Shown: piece by piece, positions 2,921-54,974 of the stretch
Layout: each line of letters begins with the position of its first letter
Numbering within the stretch: position 1 is the first letter of the stretch
Virus record (IMG/VR): IMGVR_UViG_3300026097_001223
Coordinates: 118,330 to 182,329 of that record
Direction: 5' to 3' (one strand)
Length of the DNA stretch: 64,000 nucleotides
Source: a virus
Notes under the pieces: model-generated
What the model saw: only the letters and a program-made list of their open reading frames with translations
Told to the model about the DNA's origin: nothing
Database searches by the model: none
Program-made: the position numbers and the translations under genes

Positions 2921-4531
2921 ATGAAAAAATCTATTCTCTCCATTGGCCTATTGGCCGTGTCTCTTTCTACGTCAGCAGAAACCACTGACATAACAATTTA
3001 TGTTACTCGAACACCAGTTGAACAAAGCATTGACACCAGGAGTTATACTAGAGCGGACTCTTTAGAACAACTGGAACAGTCTCCGGGTATTAATATTGTG
3101 CAGAGCGGACCGCGTGGACAAAATACCAGCATGTTTGCACGAGGCACAGAAAGTGACCATACACTGCTTGCTATCAACGGCATGCCTATCAAAGATCATA
3201 GCACTATATCTGGCAGTGATGACATTGGACAACACAGTTTGGCTGGTATTGATCAACTGTTGTTTATACGAGGTCCAGCCGGTAGCGCCTATGGGCCCAA
3301 TGCTGTAGGAGGTGCTGTTGACTTTATCAGTCGCGGCACAGGCGACAGTGTATCAGCATCAACTGGTACCTATGGTTATAAAAATCTGTATGGCAGTAAA
3401 CGTTTTGCAAAGGATTCCTTTGCTGGTAGCATTGCTGTTGAAACAGAACGTGCCAATGGCATTGATGTTCAGGACAACGGTGATCAGGACAGCTACACCA
3501 AGAAAAACATAAACCTGTATGGCAGTTGGATGCTGGATCAAGGCGACTTGTACTTGAACTATATCCAGTCAGACAATAGCAGTGACCTAGATGGATGGAA
3601 CGAAACCAGTAACTGGCAGTTTGATAACACACAACTTGGCTACGAAACACAAAGTGCTCGGATCGTCTACAATCAAGCAAATCATAAACGCATCTATGAT
3701 ACTTCCAGTGTGTATCTCAGCTCTGACGCTAGACTGTTGACTGAAAAAACCTGGAATCAATGGACAGTGAGCCTAGAGCACAGCAATCATGAGTACGACA
3801 GCAACAGTCGAACTGAGCAAGGGGCAGCTGTTGCTTATAATGATCAGTGGCTAAGTGCCGAATTGCGATCCGATGACACTGAGCTAGGGTCATTTGCCAG
3901 CTGGAGACTGGGCGTTTCTCACAGTGGTTTGCGAGCCAGCGTCGCCAACGGATTTAGAACCCCCAGCCTCTATGAAGTCTACGGTGATGATTTGTATGTA
4001 GAAGAAAACACAGGCCTGCAAGCAGAATATATCACTGCATATGAATTGGGATATAGAAACAGCTGGGTTGATACTGCTTTGTTTTTCAACCAAGAAACAG
4101 ACAGGATCACATACATCACTGATCCAGAGACCTATGTAGGACAGTACACAAACAACATCAAAGACACTGTTCGTACACACGGAGTTGAAACATCTCTTAC
4201 CAAAACTGTGGACGATGTTACTGTGAATTACAACTATACCTATACCTGGAGTGATGCAGACAAGCTGAGACAGCCAGCTCACATGCACAACCTTGCTCTT
4301 TTATATGGCAGTGTAACATATAGTGCACAGTATATAGGATCGCACCTGGACACTGACAGCAACACGTTTACTACAGTGAACATGAATGATGTGCTGTTAC
4401 AGAATTTGTCTTACAAGAAAAAATGGTTCACTGTGACGGTAAATAATATCACTGATCAACAGTATCAACGTCCAGATGGGTATCAACAATACGGACGCAC
4501 TATCACATTAAAGGCAGATTATGAATTCTAA
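2921..4531 (+). CDS. btuB: BtuB-like TonB-dependent outer-membrane cobalamin receptor, 536 aa
   Basis: Outer-membrane TonB-dependent receptor, most likely for vitamin B12 given the cobalamin riboswitch immediately upstream. N-terminal signal peptide (residues 1-19, MKKSILSIGLLAVSLSTSA), then a TonB-box-like TDITIYVTRTP. A plug domain spans roughly residues 45-140, with FARGTESDHTLLAINGMPI and IRGPAGSAYGPNAVGGAVDFIS. A long beta-barrel follows, ending in the terminal Phe typical of barrel proteins (KADYEF). At 536 residues it is shorter than the about 600 of bacterial BtuB, but plug and barrel both look present. The stop overlaps the next membrane gene, so the two are probably co-expressed. 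In a phage it could feed host B12-dependent enzymes during infection, or could block the receptor used by rival phages. Confidence 0.9.
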   Translation: MKKSILSIGLLAVSLSTSAETTDITIYVTRTPVEQSIDTRSYTRADSLEQLEQSPGINIVQSGPRGQNTSMFARGTESDHTLLAINGMPIKDHSTISGSDDIGQHSLAGIDQLLFIRGPAGSAYGPNAVGGAVDFISRGTGDSVSASTGTYGYKNLYGSKRFAKDSFAGSIAVETERANGIDVQDNGDQDSYTKKNINLYGSWMLDQGDLYLNYIQSDNSSDLDGWNETSNWQFDNTQLGYETQSARIVYNQANHKRIYDTSSVYLSSDARLLTEKTWNQWTVSLEHSNHEYDSNSRTEQGAAVAYNDQWLSAELRSDDTELGSFASWRLGVSHSGLRASVANGFRTPSLYEVYGDDLYVEENTGLQAEYITAYELGYRNSWVDTALFFNQETDRITYITDPETYVGQYTNNIKDTVRTHGVETSLTKTVDDVTVNYNYTYTWSDADKLRQPAHMHNLALLYGSVTYSAQYIGSHLDTDSNTFTTVNMNDVLLQNLSYKKKWFTVTVNNITDQQYQRPDGYQQYGRTITLKADYEF

Positions 4532-10416: not shown

Positions 10417-10583
10417 GCAAGTTTCGCAACCTACTTGCAGACCTATTCAAAACAGATGAAGAAAAACTGCGAGATCGTAAACGCCGTGTCCAACATCCAC
10501 ATATAGTTGACAGCAAACGTCACTGGGATTGGGACACGGGATACTCAGACATAGAGGACACCCACAATGACAAAAGAAAGTGA
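10413..10583 (+). CDS. small basic protein, 56 aa
   Basis: ATG at 10413 overlaps the preceding TGA and follows GAGAGG. The product is highly charged (KFRNLLADLFKTDEEKLRDRKRR) and lacks hydrophobic segments. The gene overlaps the next start by 17 bases. Unknown. Confidence 0.6.
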   Translation: MSKFRNLLADLFKTDEEKLRDRKRRVQHPHIVDSKRHWDWDTGYSDIEDTHNDKRK

Positions 10584-10827
10584 TAACTTTTATCGTGATG
10601 CTAAGTTGGTATTAGTTTGGAGCACTATTGTTACTGTGATTGCTTTATTGTTTTCATTAATTGGACAGTATGCATATGCTTCAGAAAACGATTTAGGCTA
10701 CACTCGGCAGATAAAGTGTGAGCAATCACAAGATGGCAGACAGGTCCAGTGCTGGTTAGTAGAAGTTCCTAATCAGCCAGTGCCTGGCATTGACATTTCA
10801 ACGGGGGCGGAGCGTGAAAAAAATTAA
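10567..10827 (+). CDS. small exported or membrane-anchored protein, 86 aa
   Basis: A charged N-terminus and hydrophobic helix at residues 14-40 (LVLVWSTIVTVIALLFSLIGQYAYA) look like a signal anchor or uncleaved signal. A small outside domain follows with two cysteines (IKCEQSQDGRQVQCW) that could form a disulfide in the periplasm. It overlaps genes on both sides. Not recognised. Confidence 0.65.
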   Translation: MTKESDNFYRDAKLVLVWSTIVTVIALLFSLIGQYAYASENDLGYTRQIKCEQSQDGRQVQCWLVEVPNQPVPGIDISTGAEREKN

Positions 10828-11149
10828 CTATCCAGGTACAGCCGGCATTGCTCATGACAGTGCCATTGCCGCTGTAAAAGCAGTGAACGAGGACGACGGG
10901 TATGTGATATTGCCGCCTTATTGGTTAGAAGCCAATCAACATGTTGCATCCGTGGCTCCTGGACACGGACAACTCAGCAATAATAGTGCTATAGATTACT
11001 CAGCGTTTCGAGATGCTGTCAGAGCATTAATCGAAAGTGCAGAACGTGCGGCAGTTGAACTAGCTGGGGAACCTGCTCGAGAAATATTTTGGCAGGAGTT
11101 TATTACACGCAATGAAACACAAAGTGGAAAAATCTGGGAGGATGAATAG
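10814..11149 (+). CDS. hypothetical protein, 111 aa
   Basis: GTG at 10814, preceded by a purine-rich GGGGGCGGAG stretch, is preferred over the longer frame from 10790 because it overlaps the preceding gene less. The protein is soluble-looking and mildly acidic, with an amphipathic helix-rich C-terminal half (FRDAVRALIESAERAAVELAG). Not recognised. Confidence 0.55.
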   Translation: MKKINYPGTAGIAHDSAIAAVKAVNEDDGYVILPPYWLEANQHVASVAPGHGQLSNNSAIDYSAFRDAVRALIESAERAAVELAGEPAREIFWQEFITRNETQSGKIWEDE

Positions 11150-11223
11150 TGGAAGACACAGGGTTTGTACTATTTTGTTTAGGTATTGCATTTTTGTTAG
11201 CAACCATGGTCGCTGATACATAG
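11149..11223 (+). CDS. possible 24-residue single-span membrane peptide
   Basis: GTG at 11149 overlaps the previous TAG by one base and follows GGGAGG at 11136-11141. It encodes a short acidic start (VEDTG) and one hydrophobic span (FVLFCLGIAFLLATMVA). It is too small for confident calling; the ribosome site and membrane-like content are the only support. Confidence 0.4.
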   Translation: MEDTGFVLFCLGIAFLLATMVADT

Positions 11224-11233
11224 CATAAAAGTT

Positions 11234-11241
11234 TATAAATA
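11234..11241 (+). promoter_or_regulatory. late promoter, perfect TATAAATA, in front of tmRNA
   Basis: TATAAATA matches the T4 late-promoter consensus exactly and lies a few bases before the acceptor half of the tmRNA gene. This suggests tmRNA is made late in infection by phage-modified RNA polymerase. Confidence 0.65.
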
Positions 11242-11243
11242 AC

Positions 11244-11560
11244 AGTATTCGTTGAGACGAAGTAATAGGTTGACGGACCCGGGTTCGACCCCCGGCTGCT
11301 CCACCAAAGATACATCTACAACTCCGAGAGAGTAGACCGAAAGGTGAAATAGTAGGAGACGAACGTGGTGTATCTTTGATGGGGCAGATTATGGATTCGA
11401 CGGCGACTGAAAGGCTTCGTGGAGAATCGTCAAGGCAGAAGACGTTAGGATTGGGGGTTCCCGGTCGAAGAAGCAAACTAAAGTAAACGCAAACGATGAA
11501 AACTTTGCACTTGCTGCCTAACTAGGACAGCGGAGAAACAAGGGATGCTTGGCAACAGAA
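11244..11560 (+). ncRNA. ssrA: circularly permuted (two-piece) tmRNA
   Basis: Transfer-messenger RNA, which rescues stalled ribosomes and tags the unfinished protein. The halves are in permuted order. The 3' acceptor part comes first: T arm CCGGGTTCGACCCCCGG, then CTGCTCC-A-CCA ending at 11306. It is followed by an intervening loop whose ends pair (CAAAGATACA 11305-11314 with TGTATCTTTG 11369-11378). The 5' part then starts GGGGCAGATTATGGATTCGACGG at 11381. GGGGCAG pairs with CTGCTCC, and CTTCGT in the 5' part can pair with ACGAAG in the 3' part. The tag is read from 11489-11521 as ANDENFALAA then stop. The outer ends (about 11244 and 11560) are estimates. Confidence 0.93.
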
Positions 11561-11590
11561 AGAACCTTGATTTTTGTGCACCTGCTAAAT

Positions 11591-11773
11591 ATGTGCATGA
11601 TTTATGTATTGGTGTTAATAGGCGTACTCAACTCTACAGCTGAAGTAGAAACTCTTGGCACATTTACCACCATGCAAGAATGTTTTCAAGCACGTGAGCA
11701 GGTTGTGGAATCCATTGGGAGACCAATCATCAACTATCAAGCAGTGTGTGTATTACATAAACACAGTCAATAA
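11591..11773 (+). CDS. small exported protein, 60 aa
   Basis: ATG at 11591 starts a hydrophobic signal or anchor (MCMIYVLVLIGVLNSTA) followed by TFTTMQECFQAREQ and a second Cys. The pattern resembles the small protein at 5089. The frame is open back to 11549 but that part lies in the tmRNA 3' region. Unknown function. Confidence 0.5.
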   Translation: MCMIYVLVLIGVLNSTAEVETLGTFTTMQECFQAREQVVESIGRPIINYQAVCVLHKHSQ

Positions 11774-11815
11774 CATCCATAAAAAAATACCATTGCAAAA
11801 ACCGCTATATTTGCG

Positions 11816-11843
11816 TTGACAACATAGTCTACGTTAATATATA
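11816..11843 (+). promoter_or_regulatory. sigma70-type promoter of the peroxiredoxin-rubrerythrin operon
   Basis: TTGACA (11816-11821), 16-base spacer, TATATA (11838-11843), 33 bases before the ATG at 11876. A strong AAGGAG site precedes that ATG. Confidence 0.65.
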
Positions 11844-11875
11844 GTACACATATACTTTTTAATCAAGGAGTAACA

Positions 11876-12448
11876 ATGAAAGAAGGACAAAAGGTGCCAG
11901 AGGTAACCTTTAAGTATCGTGTTCGCACAGACGGCAAACCCATCACATATGTTGATGAGACCAATGGTGGCGACAATCCATTTGAGTTCAAAGACATTTC
12001 AACAGCAGACATCTTCGGCGGAAAAACAGTTGTAGTATTTTCGCTGCCAGGGGCATACACACCAACCTGTAGTACATATCAAGTGCCAGGATTTGAAGAA
12101 AAATATGCTGATTTTGTAAATCACGGTGTAGATGATATCTACGTATTAAGTGTAAATGACACATTTGTTATGCGTCGTTGGATGATTGATCAGGGTGTGA
12201 AAAACATCAAGTTCATTCCAGATGGCAATGGTGAATTTACAGAAGGCATGGGCATGCTTAATTGCATGACAGCAGTGGGCTTTGGCAACCGCAGTCGTCG
12301 GTATGCCATGATTGTCAAGGATGGCACCATAGAGAAGATGTTTGTTGAACCAGATTCAACAGCAGACAATCCCGATCCATATGGCAAAAGTTCGCCCGAG
12401 TCGGTATTAGAATATCTTTTCGAAGAAACAATAGCTGAGTTAACATAA
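11876..12448 (+). CDS. peroxiredoxin (Prx5 type), 190 aa
   Basis: Reduces hydrogen peroxide and organic peroxides. The active-site block SLPGAYTPTCST places the peroxidatic Cys at residue 65 in the required PxxxTxxC context. FEEKYADF and VLSVND fit the Prx5/AhpE-like fold. No fused glutaredoxin domain is present. Preceded by AAGGAG and its own promoter, and followed 10 bases later by rubrerythrin, so the pair forms a small oxidative-stress operon ended by a terminator at 12917. Likely protects infected cells from peroxide. Confidence 0.92.
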   Translation: MKEGQKVPEVTFKYRVRTDGKPITYVDETNGGDNPFEFKDISTADIFGGKTVVVFSLPGAYTPTCSTYQVPGFEEKYADFVNHGVDDIYVLSVNDTFVMRRWMIDQGVKNIKFIPDGNGEFTEGMGMLNCMTAVGFGNRSRRYAMIVKDGTIEKMFVEPDSTADNPDPYGKSSPESVLEYLFEETIAELT

Positions 12449-12458
12449 GGAGAAAACT

Positions 12459-12893
12459 ATGAGCGTTAAAGGCACTAAAACAGAACAGGCATTGAAAGAT
12501 GCTTTTGCAGGCGAATCAAAAGCAAACCGTCGCTATTTGTATTTTGCAAACATGGCAGACATTGAAGGTGCTCCAGAAGTAGCCAATGTATTCCGTAATA
12601 CAGCAGAAGGCGAGACTGGTCACGCACACGGCCACATGGAGTATCTAATCACAGGCGGTGCAGGTGATCCAGAAACAGATCTTCCAGCAGGCAATGTGGT
12701 AGAAGCATTAGAAAGTGCTATTGCAGGTGAAACGCATGAGTACACCGACATGTACCCAGGCATGGCAAAGACTGCACGTGACGAAGGCTTTGATGAGATT
12801 GCTGATTGGTTTGAAACACTGGCCAAAGCAGAGCGTTCACATGCTAACAAGTTCAAGAAGACACTTGATGCATACAACGAAGAAAACGCATAA
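12459..12893 (+). CDS. rubrerythrin-type di-iron protein, 144 aa
   Basis: Four-helix di-iron peroxidase. It has the rubrerythrin spacing of ligands: GESKANRRY with the first Glu, [10 protein letters not shown] (ExxH), AGETHEY, and [12 protein letters not shown] (ExxH). The C-terminal rubredoxin domain of classical rubrerythrin is absent, so electrons would come from a separate partner. It follows peroxiredoxin in one operon with an AAGGAG site, suggesting joint peroxide removal. Confidence 0.93.
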
Positions 12894-12916
12894 AAATTAA
12901 ATCACTACAATGCCAC

Positions 12917-12944
12917 AAAAGCCCCTCACTGCAGGGGCTTTTTT
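12917..12944 (+). terminator. rho-independent terminator after rubrerythrin
   Basis: Stem GCCCCT (12921-12926) with AGGGGC (12933-12938), loop CACTGC, flanked by AAAA and followed by six Ts. Ends the peroxiredoxin-rubrerythrin transcript. Confidence 0.9.
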
Positions 12945-12945
12945 G

Positions 12946-12951
12946 TAAATA
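12946..12951 (+). promoter_or_regulatory. late-type TAAATA box, 5 nt before ATG 12957
   Basis: GTAAATAC sits directly between the terminator and the start codon at 12957 with only 5 bases left, so a late transcript would have almost no leader. Confidence 0.5.
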
Positions 12952-12956
12952 CAGTT

Positions 12957-13124
12957 ATGGAAAAAGTCTACTGGGTTTTATTGCCAGGATCAGCTCGTGC
13001 GCAGCCTCTTACTCAACAGCAGTATGAATCCTATATGAGAAGTAAATTTAGACTATGGCAAGGCACAATTCAAGGCGTGTCAAAGGCAACTTTAGAGAAA
13101 ACCAGAGACGTTGACAAATTCTAG
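12957..13124 (+). CDS. small hypothetical protein, 55 aa
   Basis: ATG 12957 to TAG 13124. Soluble, moderately basic (MEKVYWVLLPGSARAQPLTQ...). No ribosome-binding site is visible, but a TAAATA box lies 5 bases upstream, as for several other short-leader genes in this window. Not recognised. Confidence 0.55.
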   Translation: MEKVYWVLLPGSARAQPLTQQQYESYMRSKFRLWQGTIQGVSKATLEKTRDVDKF

Positions 13125-13125
13125 T

Positions 13126-13131
13126 TAAATA
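13126..13131 (+). promoter_or_regulatory. late-type TAAATA box
   Basis: TTAAATATT in the gap before the membrane gene at 13172. Confidence 0.45.
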
Positions 13132-13171
13132 TTGTTTCAAATTTTATTAGATTTTATTTTTTTGGAACAAG

Positions 13172-13528
13172 ATGACTGAAACTCAACTGCTTTTTGCACT
13201 ATTCTCCTGGCTGGTTTTAACCAGCATTATATACACTATCACAGGTTGGCAACGTGTTGCTGACTGTTATCGTATGTGGTTTACTCGTGAATACTGGACT
13301 GACTATAACATTATAGAGGCTGCAAGCTGGATTGCCAAAGCCATAATTATTATTCCTGGATTGATTTTTGGAATACAAATTTGGCAATTTTACTTTGTTG
13401 CACTGGCTACCAGCATGACACTGATTTGGGCAAGCAACAAAAAGTTGTTACCAACTCTTGTAGGATTCAACACCCTGTGGATTTGGTTGAGTATGATGGT
13501 AATTGCGCAGAACATAATCGATGTATAG
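13172..13528 (+). CDS. membrane protein, 118 aa
   Basis: Three to four hydrophobic segments (LLFALFSWLVLTSIIYTI, ASWIAKAIIIIPGLIFGI, FYFVALATSMTLIWA, TLWIWLSMMVIAQNII). ATG follows TTGGAACAAG. It overlaps the halogenase start by 8 bases, so the two are probably co-translated. Not recognised; it could be a partner that places or exports the halogenase product, but nothing shows this. Confidence 0.65.
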   Translation: MTETQLLFALFSWLVLTSIIYTITGWQRVADCYRMWFTREYWTDYNIIEAASWIAKAIIIIPGLIFGIQIWQFYFVALATSMTLIWASNKKLLPTLVGFNTLWIWLSMMVIAQNIIDV

Positions 13529-15107
13529 AAAACCAGTAAAAAATATAGTAGTACTAGGTGGCGGCACTGCTGGTTGGCTTGCGGCAGGCTATATCAGCAG
13601 TCAACTGCCCGATGTCACCATAACCGTTATTGAAAGTGACAAGACAAAAATTGTTGGTGTAGGCGAAACCACTGTGCCACAGTTTCGTACACATCTCGAA
13701 AAGATGGGTTTACAAGAAAGTCAATGGATGAAAGCCAGCGGCAGTACATTTAAATATGGCGCACGATTTGATGGCTGGCGCACAGGATCGGACAGCAGGT
13801 GGCATGGGTTCGGTGATTTCCTAGGAGAGAAAAGTATTCTGAAAAGCACTGGCGAAATCAACAAGGCCAGTGCATCCAAGGAAACAGACCATGCAATTGA
13901 CTGCGACTACTGGTTTAAATTATTACAGCAAAACAAAATATCAGGATCTCAGTTGAACTGGTTCAACAGCGAAGCCTACTATCTAATAAAACACAGCCGA
14001 GCACACGCTCTAATGGATGGCACACAGGTTGCAAGTCGGTGTCCAGGGTATGCATACAACATCAATGCGTTCAAAGTAGGGCAAGCAATAAAAGATCTAG
14101 TGGCAATGCCAAATGGAGTTGTGCATAAAGTTGCACACATCGATCAAGTTGTTTACGCAGAAGATCAAAGTGTGGACTATCTCATAGACAGCAATGGACA
14201 AAAGCACACTGCTGATTTGTACATAGATTGCACAGGATTCCGTAGGTTGCTTATTGGAGAGCATTCAAAATGGATTAGTTTCAGTGATCGGTTAGGATGT
14301 CAAAACGCCATCGGCGGCCGAGTGCAATACAACGACGACCAAGAAACTGCTTGTGATCCTGTGTTACACACCACAGCAATGAGTGCAGGGTGGAGTTGGC
14401 GAGTACCTCTACGAGACGACACTGGATCAGGCTGTGTGTTTGACTCACGGTTTATAGATCCAGATGATGCCGAACAAGAGCTGATCGATCTCTGGAAAAG
14501 CAGAGGCAAAGAAATTGACATTAAAGTGCGTATAAAATACGACAACGGTATATTAGATCGCAGTGCTCACAGAAACGTTGTTGCAGTTGGTCTTGCTAGT
14601 AATTTTTTAGAACCATTGGAAGCAACCAGCATCAGCTTTACCACTCTTGCCAACGAATTAATAGTGCAGCTGATACAAAAACACAACGGACACTGGGGGC
14701 ATCGTGACAGCGAAACACTCTCGCGACTGATGCGACGAGAAATTGACTATACTACTGATTTCATTTGGTTACACTATGCGTTAACACAACGAAAAGACAC
14801 AGAATTCTGGCGCCATGTAGGACAGCATCGCGAACAGGCCTTGCAATTGGCATACAGATGGTACCTTGACAACGTCGACATACATCGTCGAGAAAAAGAT
14901 TTCGATCACACACGATATAACAAATTTGATTGGGCACAGATGCTTACTAGCCAGTGTGCCTATCATGACGTTCCTACTCATCCAGTTGACTCTCGTTTTC
15001 TAGAACGGGCACTGATTCAGTATCAATATCGAGATACTGTAGGACAATGGATGTCTCGCACCCTGCCTAGTCATTGGCAATATCTATTGCATATCAATAA
15101 CAGCTAA
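13521..15107 (+). CDS. flavin-dependent tryptophan-halogenase family protein, 528 aa
   Basis: FAD-binding loop VVLGGGTAGWLAA at residues 10-22. The halogenase signature WSWRVP near residue 292 matches the WxWxIP motif with a conservative Ile-to-Val change. The block VGETTVPQFRTHL and FKYGARF (about residue 77) supplies the catalytic Lys expected from PrnA-type enzymes, and NFLEPLEATS (about 362) supplies the conserved Glu region. The family halogenates indole or other aromatics using FADH2, chloride or bromide, and oxygen; a separate flavin reductase is needed and none was seen in this window. Relatives are known from marine phages. The substrate is unknown. Confidence 0.9.
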   Translation: MYRKPVKNIVVLGGGTAGWLAAGYISSQLPDVTITVIESDKTKIVGVGETTVPQFRTHLEKMGLQESQWMKASGSTFKYGARFDGWRTGSDSRWHGFGDFLGEKSILKSTGEINKASASKETDHAIDCDYWFKLLQQNKISGSQLNWFNSEAYYLIKHSRAHALMDGTQVASRCPGYAYNINAFKVGQAIKDLVAMPNGVVHKVAHIDQVVYAEDQSVDYLIDSNGQKHTADLYIDCTGFRRLLIGEHSKWISFSDRLGCQNAIGGRVQYNDDQETACDPVLHTTAMSAGWSWRVPLRDDTGSGCVFDSRFIDPDDAEQELIDLWKSRGKEIDIKVRIKYDNGILDRSAHRNVVAVGLASNFLEPLEATSISFTTLANELIVQLIQKHNGHWGHRDSETLSRLMRREIDYTTDFIWLHYALTQRKDTEFWRHVGQHREQALQLAYRWYLDNVDIHRREKDFDHTRYNKFDWAQMLTSQCAYHDVPTHPVDSRFLERALIQYQYRDTVGQWMSRTLPSHWQYLLHINNS

Positions 15108-36846: not shown

Positions 36847-37074
36847 ATGCAACATCCACTAATTGGCAACTTAGATGATCTTTCACTGGATCAACTTCAT
36901 GAAAAAATCGCCGAGCTTAATAGCAAAATGACCTTTGCTATTAGTTCGGGCAATGAACACTTGATTAATCAAATCTACATGGCACTAGAAAGCTATCAAA
37001 CTGAATACAAAAAACGCACACAAGCAAGTCAAAAACCTGATCAAGACTTTTCGGACAAAATCGACATTTCATGA
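36847..37074 (+). CDS. small helical protein, 75 aa
   Basis: Soluble helical protein (LDDLSLDQLHEKIAELNSKM ... YQTEYKKRTQ), overlapping the next gene by ATGA. No ribosome-binding site is seen and the promoter predicts a nearly leaderless mRNA. Unknown. Confidence 0.65.
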   Translation: MQHPLIGNLDDLSLDQLHEKIAELNSKMTFAISSGNEHLINQIYMALESYQTEYKKRTQASQKPDQDFSDKIDIS

Positions 37075-37577
37075 TACGAGATAATGTAGGGCAACTGATT
37101 GCCACTGATCAAGATCTGATCAATGCAATAATGAGCGACAATCTAGAACTGTTTCAGCGCACTGTGTTAGTGGATTCATCTGTGGATATCAACAGTATTG
37201 CTTTGCAGTTAGAAGACTGTAACTTACAAACTGCCGGCAGTTATAACACAGTCGACGAGTTTGATGAAAAAAATCAAGCAAATTGGCACATGCCCGATGA
37301 ATACAAAAATATGGATATTGCAGAACACGTGCTTGGATTATGCAACGGCGAAGCTGAACTGCAACGTGCCGGGCATGAACTATTGCTGTATCAAGAACGT
37401 GATTTGTTTGATCTGCTGTGTTATTGCGTTTATCTAGTTGATACCATGAAAGATAACAATATCATTTGGGGCGTAGGCCGCGGCAGTAGTGTAAGCAGTT
37501 TTGTGTTATATCTAATTGGTATACACCAGGTAAACAGCTTGTACTATGAATTACCAGTGGAAGAATTTCTACGTTAA
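37071..37577 (+). CDS. DNA polymerase III alpha (DnaE)-like fragment, 168 aa
   Basis: The C-terminal half reads IIWGVGRGSSVSSFVLYLIGIHQVNSLYYELPVEEF. This corresponds to the GxGRGSxxGSxVxYxLGI...DPxxY...FERF segment at the PHP/palm boundary of bacterial DnaE. It stops there, so the catalytic palm carboxylates and the rest of the polymerase are absent. It cannot be a polymerase by itself. It may be a domain reused by the phage, or a decoy binding a host replisome partner. Overlaps the gene upstream by ATGA. Confidence 0.65.
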   Translation: MIRDNVGQLIATDQDLINAIMSDNLELFQRTVLVDSSVDINSIALQLEDCNLQTAGSYNTVDEFDEKNQANWHMPDEYKNMDIAEHVLGLCNGEAELQRAGHELLLYQERDLFDLLCYCVYLVDTMKDNNIIWGVGRGSSVSSFVLYLIGIHQVNSLYYELPVEEFLR

Positions 37578-43184: not shown

Positions 43185-43808
43185 ATGAAGTATATTTTTG
43201 TAGCTGGAGCACCGGGTAGTAAGTGGAGTTCAGTGGTTAAAAACATTTACTGGAGTCCAAGCTTGGATCAAAGTGACTATACAGAAGACAGAACCTATTG
43301 GCATGATGCCAGCGGCAAATATCAGCTTATGCACCTTGGCGCTTACTGGGATCCGGGCATGGAGTTCGGAAACAAGTTTGATCGGTTAAGCAGAACACCG
43401 CCAGAAATTGCAGAAAAAGAATTCCAACGTCCATTTAGAAAAGCCAAGGGCACTAAAATTATAAAAAGTCATGTGTTCTGTCATCAGTTGAATTATCTCA
43501 AAGAAGAGTTTCCAGATGATCCAAGGATTGTGGTACTGCGAGATTCAGACGCATGCCTGGGTTGGTGGGTGCGCTGTGGACACTTTGATATTACATATCC
43601 TGACTATGCAGAATACTATGTTGATTTAAAACACATGGCCAAGCAGATTGATCAGCAAAACACCGATGCAAGACAATTCTTGCAGGGAAATCCTGCAACC
43701 CAGGTACACAACAATCACGAACTTTGCCAGGCACTGGGCATACACCTACCGCCCAAGGAGTATGCTCAAGATTATGATAAAGCAAATATAGAAGTTTATC
43801 TAGCATGA
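43185..43808 (+). CDS. sulfotransferase-like P-loop protein, 207 aa
   Basis: N-terminal YIFVAGAPGSKWSSVVKNIYW resembles the PAPS-loop, KIIKSHVFCHQL and IVVLRDSDACLGWWVR sit where sulfotransferases have the SHxP and R..D blocks. Soluble. ATG follows AAAGGAA. Overlaps the TctA start by ATGA. Together with the genes at 6088, 28886, 39899 and 40605 it makes a set of divergent sulfotransferase-like proteins. Confidence 0.6.
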   Translation: MKYIFVAGAPGSKWSSVVKNIYWSPSLDQSDYTEDRTYWHDASGKYQLMHLGAYWDPGMEFGNKFDRLSRTPPEIAEKEFQRPFRKAKGTKIIKSHVFCHQLNYLKEEFPDDPRIVVLRDSDACLGWWVRCGHFDITYPDYAEYYVDLKHMAKQIDQQNTDARQFLQGNPATQVHNNHELCQALGIHLPPKEYAQDYDKANIEVYLA

Positions 43809-45259
43809 TAGAAATAGTCGCCGCAGTACTAGCAGGTACCGTTTACGGGTTAATCATTGGCATTATACCCAGTGCCGGCGCTACTACTGGACTGGTAGCA
43901 CTGTTTGGATTTATCGGATGGTTCATGAGTTTTGATCCTTACCTGGGTGTGATATTCACTATGGCAGTTGTTGCTGCTAGTACCACAGGCGACAGTTTCA
44001 GTGGTGTATTGTTGGGTATACCTGGCGCCAACAGCGCGGCTGCTACAATGGTAGATGGATTTCCATTGGCACTGCAAGGACGAGCAACATATGCACTCAC
44101 AGCCGCAGTTGTAACAAGCACAGCAAACGGATTAATCTGGGGCACACTGACCTTTGCACTGTTGCCTTGGTACAGTCAGTTGATCATGGTGTTTGGTATT
44201 CCCGAGCTGTGGGCATTTGTTTTTCTTGCATTAACCACTGTGGGTTTTGTGAGCAGCAAATATTGGTTACGCAGCATACTGGCTATCCTAGTTGGGTGCT
44301 TTGTGGGCCTAATAGGTCTGGATCCAAACACAGCCGCAGATAGATTCACATTTGGCTGGGACTACCTAGGCGACGGTGTGCAGCTGATGCCGTTTGTAGC
44401 AGGACTGTTTGCAGTTCCAGAAATTGTAGATGGACTGGTCAACAGAAAACAAACTGCTGAAATTTCTCGAGAAGGGCAACGTGGACAAACCGTACAAGGT
44501 ATACGTGCTGTTTGGACGAATTGCTGGGACGGACTGCGTGGTGGAGTAATTGGTGCATTCATTGGACTGTTGCCCGGGCTTGGTGGAGCAATGAGTGATT
44601 GGATGGCCTATGGTGCAACCACAGCAGCAAACAAAAATGAATCAGTGCCATTTGGCAAAGGCAACATCAAAGGAGTAATTGGACCAGAAGGATCCAACAA
44701 TGCACAAAAAGCAACTTCAATGATTCCCACTGTGCTGTTTGGCATTCCAGGTGCCAGTTTTGCTGCCATTGTAATGGGGTTGTTTATGTATCTAGATTTT
44801 GAACTGGGCACGCCTGCGCTAGCTAGCGACACCAAGTTTTTTGACAGCATGTTTATAGGATTCATGGCCGCCACAGTGTTGGTATGTGCAATTTGTTTGA
44901 TGTTCACTAGACATATAGCCAAGATCACATACTTGCCATACTGGATTTACACACCAGCATTGCTGGCGTTTGTGGTGTGGTCTTGTGTTCAGTACACCGG
45001 CGGCTGGGAAGATTATGCTGTGTTTGTAATCTGTAGTGCGCTTGGTATATTTGCCAAGTATTACAAGTTCAGTCGTCCTAGTATGCTGATTGCATTTATT
45101 CTTGCAGAAAGAATAGAAGCACTTAGCCTGCAAATGAGCAACTTATATACCGTGGATATGTTGTTAGACCGTCCACTGTTTTTGACCCTGATAGCATGTG
45201 CTTTTGCAATGTTTGTCTGGGGTGTGTTCTTTAATCAGAACAAACTTGATTACACATGA
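43805..45259 (+). CDS. tctA: TctA, large membrane subunit of a tricarboxylate transporter, 484 aa
   Basis: About ten to twelve hydrophobic segments. Signatures of TctA: GIIPSAGATTGLVALFGF, a LLGIPGANSAAATMVDGFPLALQGRA block near residue 70-95, and a second, similar half with LLPGLGGAMSDWMAYG, GVIGPEGSNNAQKATSMIPTVLFGIPGASFAAI. Complete in length. Works with a periplasmic TctC, encoded 9 bases downstream; the third subunit TctB is not found in this window. Substrate is probably a carboxylate, not definable from sequence. A second TctA end is at the window start. Confidence 0.93.
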   Translation: MIEIVAAVLAGTVYGLIIGIIPSAGATTGLVALFGFIGWFMSFDPYLGVIFTMAVVAASTTGDSFSGVLLGIPGANSAAATMVDGFPLALQGRATYALTAAVVTSTANGLIWGTLTFALLPWYSQLIMVFGIPELWAFVFLALTTVGFVSSKYWLRSILAILVGCFVGLIGLDPNTAADRFTFGWDYLGDGVQLMPFVAGLFAVPEIVDGLVNRKQTAEISREGQRGQTVQGIRAVWTNCWDGLRGGVIGAFIGLLPGLGGAMSDWMAYGATTAANKNESVPFGKGNIKGVIGPEGSNNAQKATSMIPTVLFGIPGASFAAIVMGLFMYLDFELGTPALASDTKFFDSMFIGFMAATVLVCAICLMFTRHIAKITYLPYWIYTPALLAFVVWSCVQYTGGWEDYAVFVICSALGIFAKYYKFSRPSMLIAFILAERIEALSLQMSNLYTVDMLLDRPLFLTLIACAFAMFVWGVFFNQNKLDYT

Positions 45260-45268
45260 GGAAATAAT

Positions 45269-46327
45269 ATGATCAAAAAACTATTTGCCACTGCGGCACT
45301 AGCAGCGTCAATTTCGACGACGGCAATAGCCGAGTACACCATTGTTGTTCCACAAAAGCCAGGCGGTGGAACAACTGTTTGGACAGAAATTGTAACACAA
45401 CAGTTAGAGAAACATCTTGGCAAGGAAATCACACTGAAATTGATTCCAGGCGCACGTGACATTCCGGGTATTAATGCTTGGCACAATGAGTACCGCTTCG
45501 ATGATAAAACCATTGTGGTTACACACGGCGGCAACGGTGTGAGCTTTCTTCAGGAGCAGGTTGACTACAACTATGCAGATTATGAATCAATCGGCTTGAT
45601 GAACTTGAACATTATTGCTGGTAAAACAGCCGGCGATGACATGAGCAATCCAAGATTTGCAGCTGGTTCGGGCATGGTACCGGAAGCATTTGCTATGACT
45701 ATGTTGCTTTGTGGCCCGGAGAAGTCTGTAGATGAATACGTGGCATGTTTCAAGGATAACGTTAACTGGGTGCCAGGTATGAGTGGCGGAGAAAGACGCC
45801 TTGCATTCCAGCGTGGCGAGCTGAACGGTACTCGTGAAAATCCAGCAAAATTCAAGAGTTCAGTACAGCCATTGATTGATTCTGGTGATGCAGAAGTTTG
45901 GTTCCATCATGGCATTCTACAAACCGATGGTAGTCACGCAGATGACCCAAACTACCCAGGCATGCAGTTTGAAATTTTATTCAAACAGCGTTGGGGAGTT
46001 GCGCCGAGTGGTGAACTATACGATGCTTATAAACTGGTTAAAAGCTTCCGTGACGGACTACAGAAAGCAATATGGATAAACACAGGCAATCCAAACCGTC
46101 AAGAGCTGGTTGATGCACTCACAGCCATGGTCAACGATCCAGAAAGCATGGCAGTGATTGAGAGCAAGGTAGGGCAGTATGATTGGGTAATTGGCGACGC
46201 TGGTAATGCACATAGAGATACACTAATGACATTTGTCACAAAACCTGCGTTGAAAAACCTAGTGAAGTTTAATCAACAAGCACTTGGATTGAATAGTGTT
46301 TTAAAGTCTGAACTTTACGAAAAGTAA
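45269..46327 (+). CDS. tctC: TctC-type periplasmic binding protein, 352 aa
   Basis: Signal peptide MIKKLFATAALAASISTTAIA, then the family opening YTIVVPQKPGGGTTVWTEIVTQQL, which forms part of the ligand pocket, and KLIPGARDIPGINAWHNEY. Length is a little above the usual about 320. GAGGAAA precedes the ATG. Encoded right after TctA in the same operon, so it most likely supplies ligand to it. TctC sequences are diverse and ligand prediction is not possible here. Confidence 0.88.
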   Translation: MIKKLFATAALAASISTTAIAEYTIVVPQKPGGGTTVWTEIVTQQLEKHLGKEITLKLIPGARDIPGINAWHNEYRFDDKTIVVTHGGNGVSFLQEQVDYNYADYESIGLMNLNIIAGKTAGDDMSNPRFAAGSGMVPEAFAMTMLLCGPEKSVDEYVACFKDNVNWVPGMSGGERRLAFQRGELNGTRENPAKFKSSVQPLIDSGDAEVWFHHGILQTDGSHADDPNYPGMQFEILFKQRWGVAPSGELYDAYKLVKSFRDGLQKAIWINTGNPNRQELVDALTAMVNDPESMAVIESKVGQYDWVIGDAGNAHRDTLMTFVTKPALKNLVKFNQQALGLNSVLKSELYEK

Positions 46328-51154: not shown

Positions 51155-52005
51155 TTATTGATAATGCAAAATTCCTTGAGCATGCTAGCAAAAATCTAGC
51201 ACTGTGCAGTTTAAAAACCTACAGCGACACCCTGTTGTTTTACTATCTTGGATATCTTGCTGTAAATTACACTAGACAGCCAATAGCAGAAATAGGTGTC
51301 GGCGGCAGTAGTGCTGCACTACAAGAACTCAGCGAAAAATACAACACAGTCTACTACGCTATTGATAACACTCAGGAAAGATTAGACAATTTTGCCTCAC
51401 TTAGTGGAATGTTTCCTAATAGTAAAACACAGCATGTATGCAAATACAGTGACCGATTATCCAGTGAAGAGTTTGATTCACTGGGATACATACACCTTGA
51501 TGGAGACAAAAACCGAGCAACAGCCGAAAACGATCTTGTATTTGCAGCAAATGCATTGTCAAAAAATGGTATAATCTGTCAAGACGACTATGGTAACAAC
51601 AAGTGGCCTAGTATAACAAGAGCAGTGCACAACATTTGTGCACAAGGCAATCTAAAGCCTATCCTAATCGGTGACAGCAGTATCTGGTTAGTAAAACCAG
51701 AGAATCACAGCCGCTGGATGAGCTGGTTACGTCAAGACAGTGAACTAAAAATATTATCGCAGTATATAAACCTATCACACAGCAACAGTATAGGCGACGA
51801 GGATTACTTCTATATGAATTATTTTAGTTTTATCAACTTTATTGACACAGCGCCGCATGCCGAGTATTATAAAAGACTAGACAAATATCACAGCAAGCAC
51901 TATCTGCAAATGCCGTATAAGGTGCAAAGTCGCCCTGGGCAGCACACAAAACATCGTATCTTGGATAAACTAAATGGATTACTATCAAGTTCTAGGCATT
52001 TCTAG
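51151..52005 (+). CDS. class I SAM-dependent methyltransferase, 284 aa
   Basis: SAM motif I AEIGVGGSSAALQEL, strand 2 end YYAIDNTQERLD, and YIHLDGDKNRATAENDLVFAANALSKNGIICQDDYGNNKW, matching the cephalosporin-hydroxylase or glycosyl-O-methyltransferase-like family (methyltransf_24 type). Acceptor unknown. The C-terminal end overlaps the DnaJ-like gene by 32 bases. Confidence 0.78.
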   Translation: MIIDNAKFLEHASKNLALCSLKTYSDTLLFYYLGYLAVNYTRQPIAEIGVGGSSAALQELSEKYNTVYYAIDNTQERLDNFASLSGMFPNSKTQHVCKYSDRLSSEEFDSLGYIHLDGDKNRATAENDLVFAANALSKNGIICQDDYGNNKWPSITRAVHNICAQGNLKPILIGDSSIWLVKPENHSRWMSWLRQDSELKILSQYINLSHSNSIGDEDYFYMNYFSFINFIDTAPHAEYYKRLDKYHSKHYLQMPYKVQSRPGQHTKHRILDKLNGLLSSSRHF

Positions 52006-52750
52006 AAATTCCGACGAACAAGAAATTAAACGTGCATATCGAAAACTGGCCATGAAGCATCATCCAGATCGCGGCGGCAACCCTGAAGAGTTTGCTAAAG
52101 TGCAGGAGGCGTACGACATGTTGACTAATACACAAGCTCGCGGGCACTTTGATAGTCCTCAGCCCGACTTTGATTTCAGTGGCGGCGGATTCGAAGATAT
52201 TTTCTCTCATGTGTTTGGCACAGACGGTTCATTTGGGTTTGGGCCCAGGCAACAAAGACAGCAGCGAATGCAACGTATTCAAGTGCCGATTGATTTTAAA
52301 ACCAGTCTAACCGGCGGTGTTCAGCATATTGCACTTGCCGGATTCCGGGACCCGATTGAAATTCAAGTGCCCAGTGGAGTTGACAACGGAGATCAAATAC
52401 GCTATCCTAGACTATTACAAGGTGAAGATCTTGTGGTACTGTTTAGAGTTCATCCTCATCCGGAATATCATCGTGATAGACTGGATCTACACACGGAAAT
52501 ATCTGTAGACGTGTTTGATCTCATTCTAGGGCACACTGTGATGTTTACTTCGCTGTGTGGTAAAACCATAAAACTTAATATCAAAGCTGGCACTCAACCG
52601 GAAACAGTTTTGAGAATACCGCACATGGGTGTAGAAAAGGGGCATGTTAAAGGCAACCTATACATCAAAGTAAGAGCAAGAATACCAGACAATGTCGACG
52701 ACAACGTATTAAATACTATCAAAGCCAACAGAGAAAAAAATGAGCAATAA
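51974..52750 (+). CDS. DnaJ/Hsp40-type cochaperone, 258 aa
   Basis: J domain at residues 1-60 with the HPD motif at about 33-35 (KHHPDRGGN), required to stimulate DnaK ATPase. A Gly-rich linker follows (SGGGFEDIFSHVFG). The C-terminal domain has DLVVLFRVHPHPEYHRDRLDLHTEISVDVFDLILG, as in type B (CbpA-like) cochaperones, with no zinc finger. It recruits host DnaK. It is immediately followed by the ClpA-like gene, overlapping by 11 bases, suggesting a joint protein-folding and unfolding unit. Confidence 0.92.
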   Translation: MDYYQVLGISRNSDEQEIKRAYRKLAMKHHPDRGGNPEEFAKVQEAYDMLTNTQARGHFDSPQPDFDFSGGGFEDIFSHVFGTDGSFGFGPRQQRQQRMQRIQVPIDFKTSLTGGVQHIALAGFRDPIEIQVPSGVDNGDQIRYPRLLQGEDLVVLFRVHPHPEYHRDRLDLHTEISVDVFDLILGHTVMFTSLCGKTIKLNIKAGTQPETVLRIPHMGVEKGHVKGNLYIKVRARIPDNVDDNVLNTIKANREKNEQ

Positions 52751-54974
52751 AAATCCCGAAATTGAAGGCATCCTTGCCCATGCAACTGAAATTGCAACCA
52801 AGGCAAATCACGAGTATGTTACCTGTGAACATTTGCTATCTGCACTGGTTCAGCATCCTCCATTTGAAAAGTGTTTACAGGAGTTCGGCGCAGACACTGA
52901 ACAGCTGATTGCAGAACTGGACGCTTACTTGGAAAGTCTCAACAGCATTATCAGCACTGCCGGCGGCCGTCCTAGGAAAACAGCGGCGCTGGAGCGAGTG
53001 TTCAATAGAGCGATGACTCAAGTGCTGTTTACTGGCAGGGACAATGTGAGCACTGTTGACCTTTATCTTGCTATCATGGCCGAGACCAACAGCTTTGCTC
53101 AATACTTCTTGCTCAAGCAAAACATCACTAGAGAACAATTTGCTGACCACTGGCACGAAACCTATGACTCCGGTGACTACAGCAAAGTTTCTGGCGCACA
53201 AGCAAACAAAGTATTGTCAGAGTATTGTACCGATGTTACAGCACGAGCCGAGACCGGTGAGCTTGAACCAATGATTGGTCGAGAAAAAGAAGTTGACGAA
53301 ATTGTAACGGTGTTGGCCAAAAAATGGAAGGCTAATGTAATGCTGATCGGCGACCCAGGAGTAGGAAAAACAGCCATTGTGGAAGGGCTGGCACAATCCA
53401 TTGCAGATAAGTCTGTTCCAGAGTACCTGCAGACTGCAAGAATTTGGAGTCTCGAAGTTGGCAACTTGGTCGCGGGCAGTAAGTATCGCGGAGACTTTGA
53501 AGAAAAACTTAAAAATGTGCTTGAAGCACTGGAAAGTATTCCCAACAGCATCTTGTTTATTGACGAAGCACACACCATCAAAGGTGCAGGCAGTGTAAGC
53601 AAAGGCGAAGGTCTTGACTTTGCAAACATGTTGAAACCACATATCACAACTGGTAAAATCAAGGTTATTGCCAGCACTACCTGGGAAGAATACTACGAAA
53701 GCTTCGAAAAAGATCGTGCATTGATGCGCAGATTCTACAATGTTAATGTAGACGAGCCCGACAACGACACCACGGTAAAGATCATGCTTGGATTGAAAAA
53801 ACGCCTGGAAAGCTATCACGGAGTTGAAATTGACCAAGCCGCTGTAGAAGAAACTGTGCAACTAACTGCTCGATATATCCCGGACAGAAAAAATCCAGAC
53901 AAGAGTATAGATCTACTAGACACAACCTGTGCGTATGTACGCAGTCACAGCGATGTGGGCAAAGAGATTACTAAAAATCTTGTGATGAATAGACTGAGTC
54001 ATATCACTGGCATTCCAGAAAACAAGTTGAAAAGTAACGCTAGTGCTAAGATACAGAATCTAGAAGGTGCAATCAAAGAAAAACTCTACGGACAAGACAG
54101 CGTAGTTGACAGTGTGCTGGACAGAATTTACATGAGCTTCGGCGGACTAGGCAGTGCCAATCGGCCACAAACCAGTATGTTATTCCTAGGCCCAACTGGC
54201 ACAGGTAAAACTGAGCTAGCTCGTCAACTAAGCAAGAACCTCGACATGCATCTACTGCGCTATGATATGAGTGAGTATCAAGAGCGACACAGTGTCAGCA
54301 GTTTACTAGGAGCGCCTCCGGGTTATGTGGGGTTCGGCGAAGCCAGTCAAGGCGGCGGCAGATTGATCAGCGATATCAGCAAGCATCCGTTTAGTGTTCT
54401 GTTGTTCGACGAAGTGGAAAAGGCACACCCAGATGTGTACAATATTTTTCTACAGATGCTAGACGAAGGCACTATCACTGGCACAAATGGCAAAACAGTA
54501 AATGTTAAAAACTGTATTGTAATAATGACATCAAATCTGGGTGCCAGGGCCAATGAACAGAACGCAATTGGGTTTGGATCACTGGAAAACACCGGCAAAG
54601 AAGATCAAGAACTAAAGGACTTTTTCCGTCCTGAATTGAGAAACAGAATCGATCTTGTGTGCAAGTTTGATAAACTGGACAATCTCAGTGTGCGCAAAGT
54701 TGTGTTAAAATTCTTGCATGAACTAGAAGCACGATTAAAAGACAAAAACATCACTGTGGAATTCACAGAAGCATTGATCGGGCACGTTGCTGAAAATGGT
54801 TATGACAGTGCCATGGGTGCTAGACCATTGGCTAGATATATCGATGAACATGTAAAAGTTCCGCTGAGCAAGCAGATCTTGTTCCAGGAACTGCAGGATA
54901 CACACATCAAGCTGGATATCAGCAACGGCGAAGTGGTCATATCTCAACACGAAAAGTCATTAAGCAATGCATAA
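52740..54974 (+). CDS. ClpA-like AAA+ unfoldase, 744 aa
   Basis: Two AAA+ modules: Walker A GDPGVGKT near residue 204 and GPTGTGKT near 484, with Walker B ILFIDEAH and LLFDEVEKAHPDV. A Clp N-terminal domain occupies about residues 1-140. The long M-domain of ClpB is missing, so the layout is that of ClpA. A loop NAIGFGSLEN near residue 609 resembles the IGL/IGF docking loop that engages ClpP; no clpP gene was seen, so the partner could be host ClpP. Could unfold tmRNA-tagged proteins. Overlaps DnaJ and the next gene. Confidence 0.9.
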   Translation: MSNKNPEIEGILAHATEIATKANHEYVTCEHLLSALVQHPPFEKCLQEFGADTEQLIAELDAYLESLNSIISTAGGRPRKTAALERVFNRAMTQVLFTGRDNVSTVDLYLAIMAETNSFAQYFLLKQNITREQFADHWHETYDSGDYSKVSGAQANKVLSEYCTDVTARAETGELEPMIGREKEVDEIVTVLAKKWKANVMLIGDPGVGKTAIVEGLAQSIADKSVPEYLQTARIWSLEVGNLVAGSKYRGDFEEKLKNVLEALESIPNSILFIDEAHTIKGAGSVSKGEGLDFANMLKPHITTGKIKVIASTTWEEYYESFEKDRALMRRFYNVNVDEPDNDTTVKIMLGLKKRLESYHGVEIDQAAVEETVQLTARYIPDRKNPDKSIDLLDTTCAYVRSHSDVGKEITKNLVMNRLSHITGIPENKLKSNASAKIQNLEGAIKEKLYGQDSVVDSVLDRIYMSFGGLGSANRPQTSMLFLGPTGTGKTELARQLSKNLDMHLLRYDMSEYQERHSVSSLLGAPPGYVGFGEASQGGGRLISDISKHPFSVLLFDEVEKAHPDVYNIFLQMLDEGTITGTNGKTVNVKNCIVIMTSNLGARANEQNAIGFGSLENTGKEDQELKDFFRPELRNRIDLVCKFDKLDNLSVRKVVLKFLHELEARLKDKNITVEFTEALIGHVAENGYDSAMGARPLARYIDEHVKVPLSKQILFQELQDTHIKLDISNGEVVISQHEKSLSNA

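What the first reader, a model, noticed from the sequence alone, without database searches (positions are those of the whole stretch)
11234..11560. Circularly permuted tmRNA on a phage, behind a perfect late promoter
The acceptor half precedes the coding half, the spacer ends can pair, and the reading frame gives ANDENFALAA. The tag resembles gamma/beta-proteobacterial tags, whereas permuted tmRNA is best known from alphaproteobacteria, some cyanobacteria and a few betaproteobacteria. TATAAATA immediately upstream suggests late, phage-controlled expression. A phage that rescues ribosomes with its own tag may preserve ribosomes while host mRNA is degraded.
Basis: partly seen in the sequence, partly recalled or inferred. 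Interest (0 to 1): 0.85.

Follow-up and report, generated by a model that had tools for sequence, protein, structure and literature searches.

The report
Late-promoted permuted tmRNA in jumbo phage
A large environmental bacteriophage carries an apparently intact, rearranged ribosome-rescue RNA gene of the kind found in some betaproteobacteria, placed behind what looks like the phage's own late switch; such genes are already known in phages, but the late switch and its placement look new.

Summary
Window 11247-~11569 (+) is a circularly permuted tmRNA gene: Rfam RF04321 97 bits against a cut-off of 47, ARAGORN permuted call, encoded CCA, G3-U70 acceptor stem, paired spacer ends, tag ANDENFALAA. 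The phage is a T4-superfamily relative of the jumbo phages PA5oct and Phosso.

Phage-borne permuted tmRNA is already published (PMC9004378), so this is a new member of a known kind.

TATAAATA is the most start-associated of 56 equal-composition octamers in the record (6 of 10). Here it ends 9 nt before the first conserved RNA motif, where 7 of 8 beta cell genes have a -10-like box. TAAATA lies upstream of 15 of 31 distinct phage genes, 0 of 8 beta and 1 of 17 alpha cell genes. The published phage case was assigned an early promoter. Function, timing and host remain inferred.

The parts
11234..11241 (+). TATAAATA, T4-type late promoter box; predicted start near 11247
   Evidence: 6 of 10 copies in the record, this one not among them, lie within 60 nt upstream of an ORF start; it ends 9 nt before the GTTGAG motif. 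The late-promoter geometry is recalled from T4.
11247..11306 (+). acceptor (3' tRNA-like) piece of the permuted tmRNA, T arm and encoded CCA; 5' end uncertain
   Evidence: RF04321 match starts at 11247; ARAGORN puts the gene start at 11214 and the alpha model at 11190; acceptor stem CTGCTCC pairs 7 of 7 with GGGGCAG including G3-U70
11307..11380 (+). 74-nt intervening spacer whose ends pair, extending the acceptor stem; presumably removed
11381..11569 (+). coding (5' tRNA-like plus mRNA-like) piece; 3' end approximate
   Evidence: RF04321 to 11521 and RF01849 to 11569; ARAGORN gene end 11612
11489..11521 (+). tag reading frame ANDENFALAA with TAA stop
51974..52750 (+). DnaJ-like chaperone, next to the ClpA-like gene as in PA5oct; lineage context, not shown to act with the tmRNA
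   Evidence: Pfam DnaJ and DnaJ_C; PA5oct gp187-gp186
52740..54974 (+). ClpA-like AAA+ unfoldase; possible handler of tagged proteins
   Evidence: NCBIfam TIGR02639 790 bits, below its 993 cut-off

Best explanation
This is an apparently intact, phage-controlled copy of a permuted tmRNA gene of the betaproteobacterial and phage group. Shown by sequence: the permuted order, a tRNA-like domain with the alanine identity pair, a tag frame ending in ALAA, covarying spacer ends, and a TATAAATA box at the register where cellular beta genes have a -10-like box. Inferred: late in infection the phage-modified RNA polymerase starts at about 11247; RNase P and 3' processing enzymes of the host cut out the spacer hairpin; host AlaRS and SmpB charge and load the two-piece RNA, since no SmpB was found in the record; ribosomes stalled on broken mRNA are released; the tagged fragments go to host ClpXP or ClpAP. 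The likely benefit is keeping ribosomes working during late virion production.
For: Gene. Spacer pairing kept by covariation. Beta and phage group, not alpha; kin tmRNAs exceed the beta cut-off in 3 of 5. Late box: of 56 octamers with the same letters TATAAATA has most copies near ORF starts (6 of 10, all 56 together 83 of 752; binomial 2.6e-4); one copy lies 23 nt before the 1081-aa ORF that matches tail sheath gp18. Register: a -10-like hexamer 9 nt before G[CT]TG in 7 of 8 beta cell genes, 10 nt in the other; a late box at 9 nt in the window and kin L152 (7 of 7 scored letters) and in L154 (6 of 7, tied with another place at 13 nt). General: with one fixed rule (TAAATA 58-105 nt before the end of CCA, no locus dropped), 15 of 31 distinct upstream regions from 65 phage loci, 0 of 8 beta and 1 of 17 alpha cell genes, and 170 of 13,000 random windows of the same phage loci. 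A first count with automatic anchors gave 13 of 29, 0 of 21 and 89 of 13,000.
Against: No late sigma factor (gp55), gp33 or clamp gp45 was found in the record with single-sequence searches, although the record may be incomplete. 16 of 31 distinct phage regions have no TAAATA, among them L005-L010, L053 and the kin L154, and the three named phages have none; one alpha cell gene, L225, has it (it had been dropped for want of an anchor). In L153 and L155 the box lies 16 and 14 nt away, not 9. The phage regions are not independent: many come from one clade. ARAGORN and the alpha model start the gene at 11214 and 11190, which would put the box inside it; ARAGORN sets the outer end about 30 nt beyond the RF04321 match in kin and cell genes too, so I read this as its convention. 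The window tmRNA is the most divergent of the five kin (branch 1.0 and 0.75) and misses the beta cut-off. No RNA or protein evidence of any kind.
Confidence: 0.7

Rival explanations
1. The tmRNA is real but constitutive or early, and TATAAATA is a coincidence in AT-rich DNA; expression comes from read-through or a sigma-70 promoter.
For: 5 TATAAATA in the window against 2.9 expected; the Melnitz tmRNA was assigned an early promoter (PMC9004378, passages); no late sigma factor found here; 16 of 31 distinct phage regions lack TAAATA.
Against: Position at the cellular -10 register, chance about 8e-5 from the octamer's density; late-box cores in kin and in 15 of 31 distinct phage regions; the simple sigma-70 scan of 10500-13600 lists no site between 10987 and 11816 on the + strand.
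Confidence: 0.2
2. The phage tmRNA is a decoy or inhibitor that ties up host SmpB or ribosomes rather than rescuing them, as reported for the tag-less tmRNA of phage DS6A.
For: The DS6A form is reported to inhibit endogenous tmRNA (PMC11915505, passage); no SmpB in the record.
Against: Complete tag frame with stop, paired acceptor and G3-U70; tags stay open and end in AA in the four full kin genes.
Confidence: 0.05
3. Together with the phage's ClpA-like protein the tmRNA forms a phage-run tag-and-unfold module that recycles host or broken proteins.
For: ClpA-like gene in 3 of 16 records, exactly the three over 180 kb, all of which carry the tmRNA; the 175- and 157-kb records without tmRNA lack it (Fisher p 0.036 over 16).
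Against: PA5oct has the DnaJ-ClpA pair and ClpS but no tmRNA; three further tmRNA carriers show no ClpA, though they are fragments; record length is confounded; no ClpP or SspB; ClpS, also present, is recalled to turn ClpA away from SsrA tags.
Confidence: 0.12

Closest known systems
Phage Melnitz (OM43) two-piece tmRNA, and the 53 of 133 unique phage tmRNA structures suggested as two-piece (PMC9004378)
   Same: Permuted tmRNA with a full tag on a T4-like phage.
   Different: The paper groups the Melnitz gene with alphaproteobacteria, places it behind an early promoter and links it to a glutamine riboswitch; here beta and phage type, late-type box, and no riboswitch over its cut-off in 11150-11900.
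Betaproteobacterial permuted tmRNA (Rfam RF01850; cell genes G095 and G211)
   Same: Permuted order, identical tag ANDENFALAA in G095 and G211, paired spacer ends, same start register.
   Different: Window gene below the RF01850 cut-off; spacer 74 nt against 24-42 nt in 8 beta cell genes; late box in place of the -10-like box.
Unannotated permuted tmRNA in Xanthomonas phage XacN1, Pseudomonas phage SM1, Alcaligenes phage QDWS595
   Same: RF04321 123, 119 and 111 bits; long paired spacers of 114, 112 and 74 nt.
   Different: Other tags; no TAAATA upstream in any of the three; cultivated phages with known hosts.
Jumbo phage PA5oct
   Same: Terminase 54.5% and capsid 68.3% identical over the parts searched; DnaJ-ClpA, ClpS, bS21 and GroES-like genes with homologues in this record.
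   Different: No tmRNA by ARAGORN or Rfam.

Membership tests
Permuted tmRNA (Rfam RF04321) | covariance score over the curated cut-off | tested here: met
   97 bits, cut-off 47
Permuted tmRNA (Rfam RF04321) | acceptor half upstream of coding half, 7-bp acceptor stem with G3-U70 | tested here: met
   (the parser favours stems with U70)
Permuted tmRNA (Rfam RF04321) | open tag frame starting with the resume codon and ending in a stop | tested here: met
   ANDENFALAA-stop
Permuted tmRNA (Rfam RF04321) | transcript cut into two pieces held by pairing | not testable with these tools
   only the spacer hairpin and covariation are seen
Permuted tmRNA (Rfam RF04321) | works with SmpB | tested here: inconclusive
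   no SmpB in the 182-kb record; host unknown
Alphaproteobacterial tmRNA (RF01849) | score over the cut-off | tested here: met
   60.4 against 50, but a beta cell gene scores 86.9 on the same model while 17 hits score 115-311
Alphaproteobacterial tmRNA (RF01849) | groups with alphaproteobacterial genes | tested here: not met
   all 16 alpha rows on one side of a 99/99 or 100/97 branch, window on the other
Betaproteobacterial tmRNA (RF01850) | score over the cut-off | tested here: not met
   52.7 against 84; kin L152-L154 pass with 155.6, 134.6, 102
T4-type late promoter | TATAAATA at the right place before the start | tested here: met
   the start itself is not mapped
T4-type late promoter | phage late sigma factor (gp55) encoded | tested here: inconclusive
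   not found with HTVC008M or PA5oct gp55; record may be incomplete
T4-type late promoter | transcription late in infection | not testable with these tools
   uncultivated phage, no RNA data

The most novel reading that the evidence does not exclude
In a set of T4-superfamily phages, several of them jumbo relatives of PA5oct, a cellular-type permuted tmRNA gene has been rewired: the host -10 box is replaced by the phage late box, in the window and at least one relative at the very same distance from the RNA, so that trans-translation is switched on late by the phage itself. This is the opposite of the early timing proposed for the one published case.
Probability: 0.5. Interest if true: 0.62.

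Novelty: new member of a known kind. Interest (0 to 1): 0.45.

Why it matters
Why phages carry tmRNA is open. The Melnitz paper offers two ideas, upkeep of the hijacked machinery and tagging of host proteins for recycling, and places the latter early so as to spare viral proteins (PMC9004378, passages). A late box at the cellular start register argues for ribosome rescue during virion production and makes the question testable by timing and deletion. The same kind of gene lies unannotated in three cultivated phages that I checked out of ten matching records, so a first functional test does not need the uncultivated phage, though those three lack the late box. One of them infects Pseudomonas, whose own tmRNA is one-piece (recalled), so gene form need not match the host.

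Tried and rejected
Alphaproteobacterial origin, suggested by the Rfam clan winner: rejected by the trees and because a beta cell gene itself scores 86.9 on the alpha model. 'Tag seen only in one-piece cells': the exact-codon tag search of 84,980 species gave 26 loci, and ARAGORN called 24 of the 26 one-piece with this tag (L168 also got a second, overlapping permuted call with another tag, taken as spurious); L175 and L178 gave no gene, L178 being a partial RF00023 at the locus edge. I first took this to mean that no permuted cellular gene has the tag (note). That was wrong: my pattern left out TGA stops, on another genome set, found two permuted cellular genes with it (G095 ends in TGA; G211 ends in TAA and is not among the 26 loci). 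'No cellular gene has TAAATA upstream': wrong in one case; the recount found L225, which one search had dropped. Riboswitch in or after the tmRNA: none over its cut-off in 11150-11900 (freshwater-2 21.9 bits against 49.9, taken as chance). Small genomes in the family of G095 made me think of Polynucleobacter (searched papers for it), but nothing here tests it. ClpA coupling: weakened by PA5oct. SspB as phage adaptor: none in 7 records. tmRNA of the window in the phages collection: no match.

The two structural pattern scans demand exact letters and fixed spacer ranges, so their 58 viral loci are a biased sample. In one search, 3 of 25 cell loci failed to parse, L225 had no anchor, and the automatic anchor is off in some rows; one search repeats the count with a fixed region and all 65 phage and 25 cell loci. 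Trees used 11 of the 60 loci from the viral pattern scans and 16 of 17 alpha loci (L232 not parsed); cyanobacterial permuted genes were not sampled. L156 was left out as truncated. Rows with long branches (L001, L005, L257-L259) have unsure places inside the beta and phage group. Of ten phage records found three were examined.

Full report
What is there. The window is bases 118330-182329 of a 182,329-base virus record. At 11234-11241 stands TATAAATA; from 11247 follows an acceptor piece with a T arm and an encoded CCA that ends at 11306; then a 74-nt spacer; then from 11381 a coding piece with GGGGCAG, a D-loop of the TGGATTCGAC type and a tag frame at 11489-11521 that reads ANDENFALAA. Rfam's general permuted-tmRNA model gives 97 bits against a cut-off of 47. 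The acceptor stem pairs 7 of 7 with G3-U70, as in the 38 other genes that the script parsed (39 of 41; L005 and L232 failed, and L005 was then placed by hand; the parser favours stems with U70). The folded RNA shows the spacer ends continuing the acceptor stem.

Is the spacer pairing real? For nine phage genes found without any spacer criterion, the ends of the same spacer pair over 9.7 bp on average; ends taken from different genes pair over 5.2 bp, and 0 of 72 such swaps reach the native median. For 19 phage genes the figures are 9.0 and 5.4. Beta cell genes behave alike (9.0 against 6.2), alpha genes less clearly (6.4 against 4.9, where 27% of swaps reach the native median). Phage spacers are longer (23-114 nt, median 74) than those of 8 beta cell genes (24-42 nt; Mann-Whitney p 0.008) and of 16 alpha genes (23-115 nt; p 0.0065), with kin L155 (23 nt) an exception.

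Which tmRNA lineage? The clan winner in Rfam is the alpha model, at 60.4 bits, and the beta model gives 52.7, under its cut-off. This is misleading. A betaproteobacterial gene (G095) itself scores 86.9 on the alpha model, whereas 17 other hits in the same phylum search score 115-311. In trees of 40 and 43 genes, with spacer and most of the tag removed, one well-supported branch (99/99 and 100/97) separates all 16 alpha genes from all phage and beta genes, the window's included. Places inside that group are mostly unsure. Three of five jumbo kin pass the beta cut-off (155.6, 134.6 and 102 bits; L155 instead passes the alpha cut-off with 64, and L156 is truncated). Cyanobacterial genes were not sampled.

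The tag. Exact-codon searches (TAA or TAG stop) found the tag in 26 loci of 84,980 species; 24 of the 26 were called one-piece with this tag, all in records titled as gammaproteobacteria or Neisseriaceae, or as genera that I know as such. But 3 of 150 genomes in the order of L159's genome have clear permuted genes, a fourth match over the cut-off being one-piece by ARAGORN. In the family of one of them, 6 of 61 genomes have permuted genes over the cut-off, with tags ANDENFALAA (2), ANDESYALAA (3) and ANDDKFALAA (1). So tag and form go together in a cellular lineage. Among viral contigs the exact codons occur on two more contigs, L005 and L006, with what looks like one and the same permuted gene that ARAGORN missed.

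The phage. Its major capsid protein is 72.8% identical to that of Sinorhizobium phage Phosso and 68.3% to that of Pseudomonas jumbo phage PA5oct; its terminase is 54.5% identical to that of PA5oct. Of 36 such records searched, 5 carry the permuted gene over the cut-off, one of them cut by the contig end, and two more have weak matches below it; of the 11 records of 80 kb or more, 5 do. The record has a ClpA-like gene next to a DnaJ gene, as PA5oct does, plus ClpS, ribosomal protein S21 and a GroES-like gene, but no SmpB, ClpP or SspB was found. PA5oct has no tmRNA, so the chaperone set does not depend on it. A ClpA-like gene was found in 3 of 16 records, all three among the 6 tmRNA carriers.

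The late box. Of 56 octamers made of the same letters, TATAAATA has the most copies within 60 nt upstream of an ORF start: 6 of 10, against 83 of 752 for all 56 together (binomial 2.6e-4). One copy lies 23 nt before the ORF that holds the tail-sheath match. At the tmRNA the box ends 9 nt before the first conserved motif. In 7 of 8 beta cell genes a -10-like hexamer ends 9 nt before the same motif, in the eighth 10 nt. Kin L152 has GATAAATA at 9 nt, L154 AATAAGTA at 9 nt (6 of 7 letters, tied with another place), L155 ACTAAATA at 14 nt, L153 AATAAATA at 16 nt. With one fixed region for every gene and no locus dropped, TAAATA occurs in 15 of 31 distinct upstream regions (65 phage loci), 0 of 3 named phages, 0 of 8 beta and 1 of 17 alpha cell genes, and in 170 of 13,000 random windows of the same phage loci. 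The phage regions are related to each other, so they are fewer than 31 independent cases. In T4 the box spans about -13 to -6 (recalled), which puts the start at 11247, the first position of the RNA model; ARAGORN and the alpha model begin further upstream, at 11214 and 11190. No late sigma factor was found.

Known or new? Buchholz and colleagues (name recalled; PMC9004378, passages) described the two-piece tmRNA of phage Melnitz, counted 53 suggested two-piece among 133 unique phage structures, and placed the Melnitz gene behind an early promoter. PMC11915505 (passages) lists 79 phage tmRNA sequences. Pf16 (PMC5587285, passages) has perfect TATAAATA boxes and an SspB-like gene but no tmRNA. 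My searches for permuted or two-piece tmRNA with phage, pelagiphage, phage-encoded trans-translation, late promoter, ClpA, Polynucleobacter and XacN1 listed no paper that I recognised, from listings only, as describing a late-promoted phage tmRNA; each listing is capped and the library lacks most subscription journals. The XacN1 paper has no occurrence of the word tmRNA in its main text (PMC5852040, term search and passages), yet XacN1 holds a permuted gene of 123 bits that is sister to kin L152 (98/91).

Verdict. A genuine gene of a known kind, with a supported new detail: a phage late box in place of the cellular promoter, here at the same start register. What it does for the phage is inference; ribosome rescue in the late phase is the most likely role.

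Noticed in passing
L257, L258, L259 (XacN1, SM1, Alcaligenes phage QDWS595): Permuted tmRNA genes over the Rfam cut-off with no feature annotated over them in the deposited records.
   Followed up: partly
L154, spacer of the tmRNA: The 98-nt spacer holds an ATG frame of about 41 codons, rich in Trp and hydrophobic residues, that runs into the coding piece (read by eye).
   Followed up: no
window 11549-11773 and just upstream of the tmRNA in L153: By eye a short Cys-containing protein of similar pattern lies beside the tmRNA in both phages; the window copy matches phrog_5579 weakly, E 5.6e-5.
   Followed up: no
window 2921-4531: A TonB-dependent receptor like BtuB on a phage: Plug domain 48.6 bits; best NCBIfam the vitamin B12 receptor at 123.8 bits, below its cut-off.
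   Followed up: no
window 43805-46327: TctA transporter gene (Pfam 315 bits) followed by a 352-aa protein without a Pfam match; odd cargo for a phage.
   Followed up: no
window 11876-12893: Peroxiredoxin and rubrerythrin genes soon after the tmRNA, with a sigma-70-like site at 11816-11845 before them.
   Followed up: no
window 13521-15107: Tryptophan halogenase (Pfam 299 bits); HTVC008M also has one annotated.
   Followed up: no
window 37071-37577: A short stretch of DNA polymerase III alpha (PF07733, 40 bits), perhaps a split or remnant polymerase gene.
   Followed up: no
L017 17841-18961 (record 97841-98961): Ribosomal protein S21 and ClpS genes close together, with a TATAAATA at record position 98090 between them.
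   Followed up: partly
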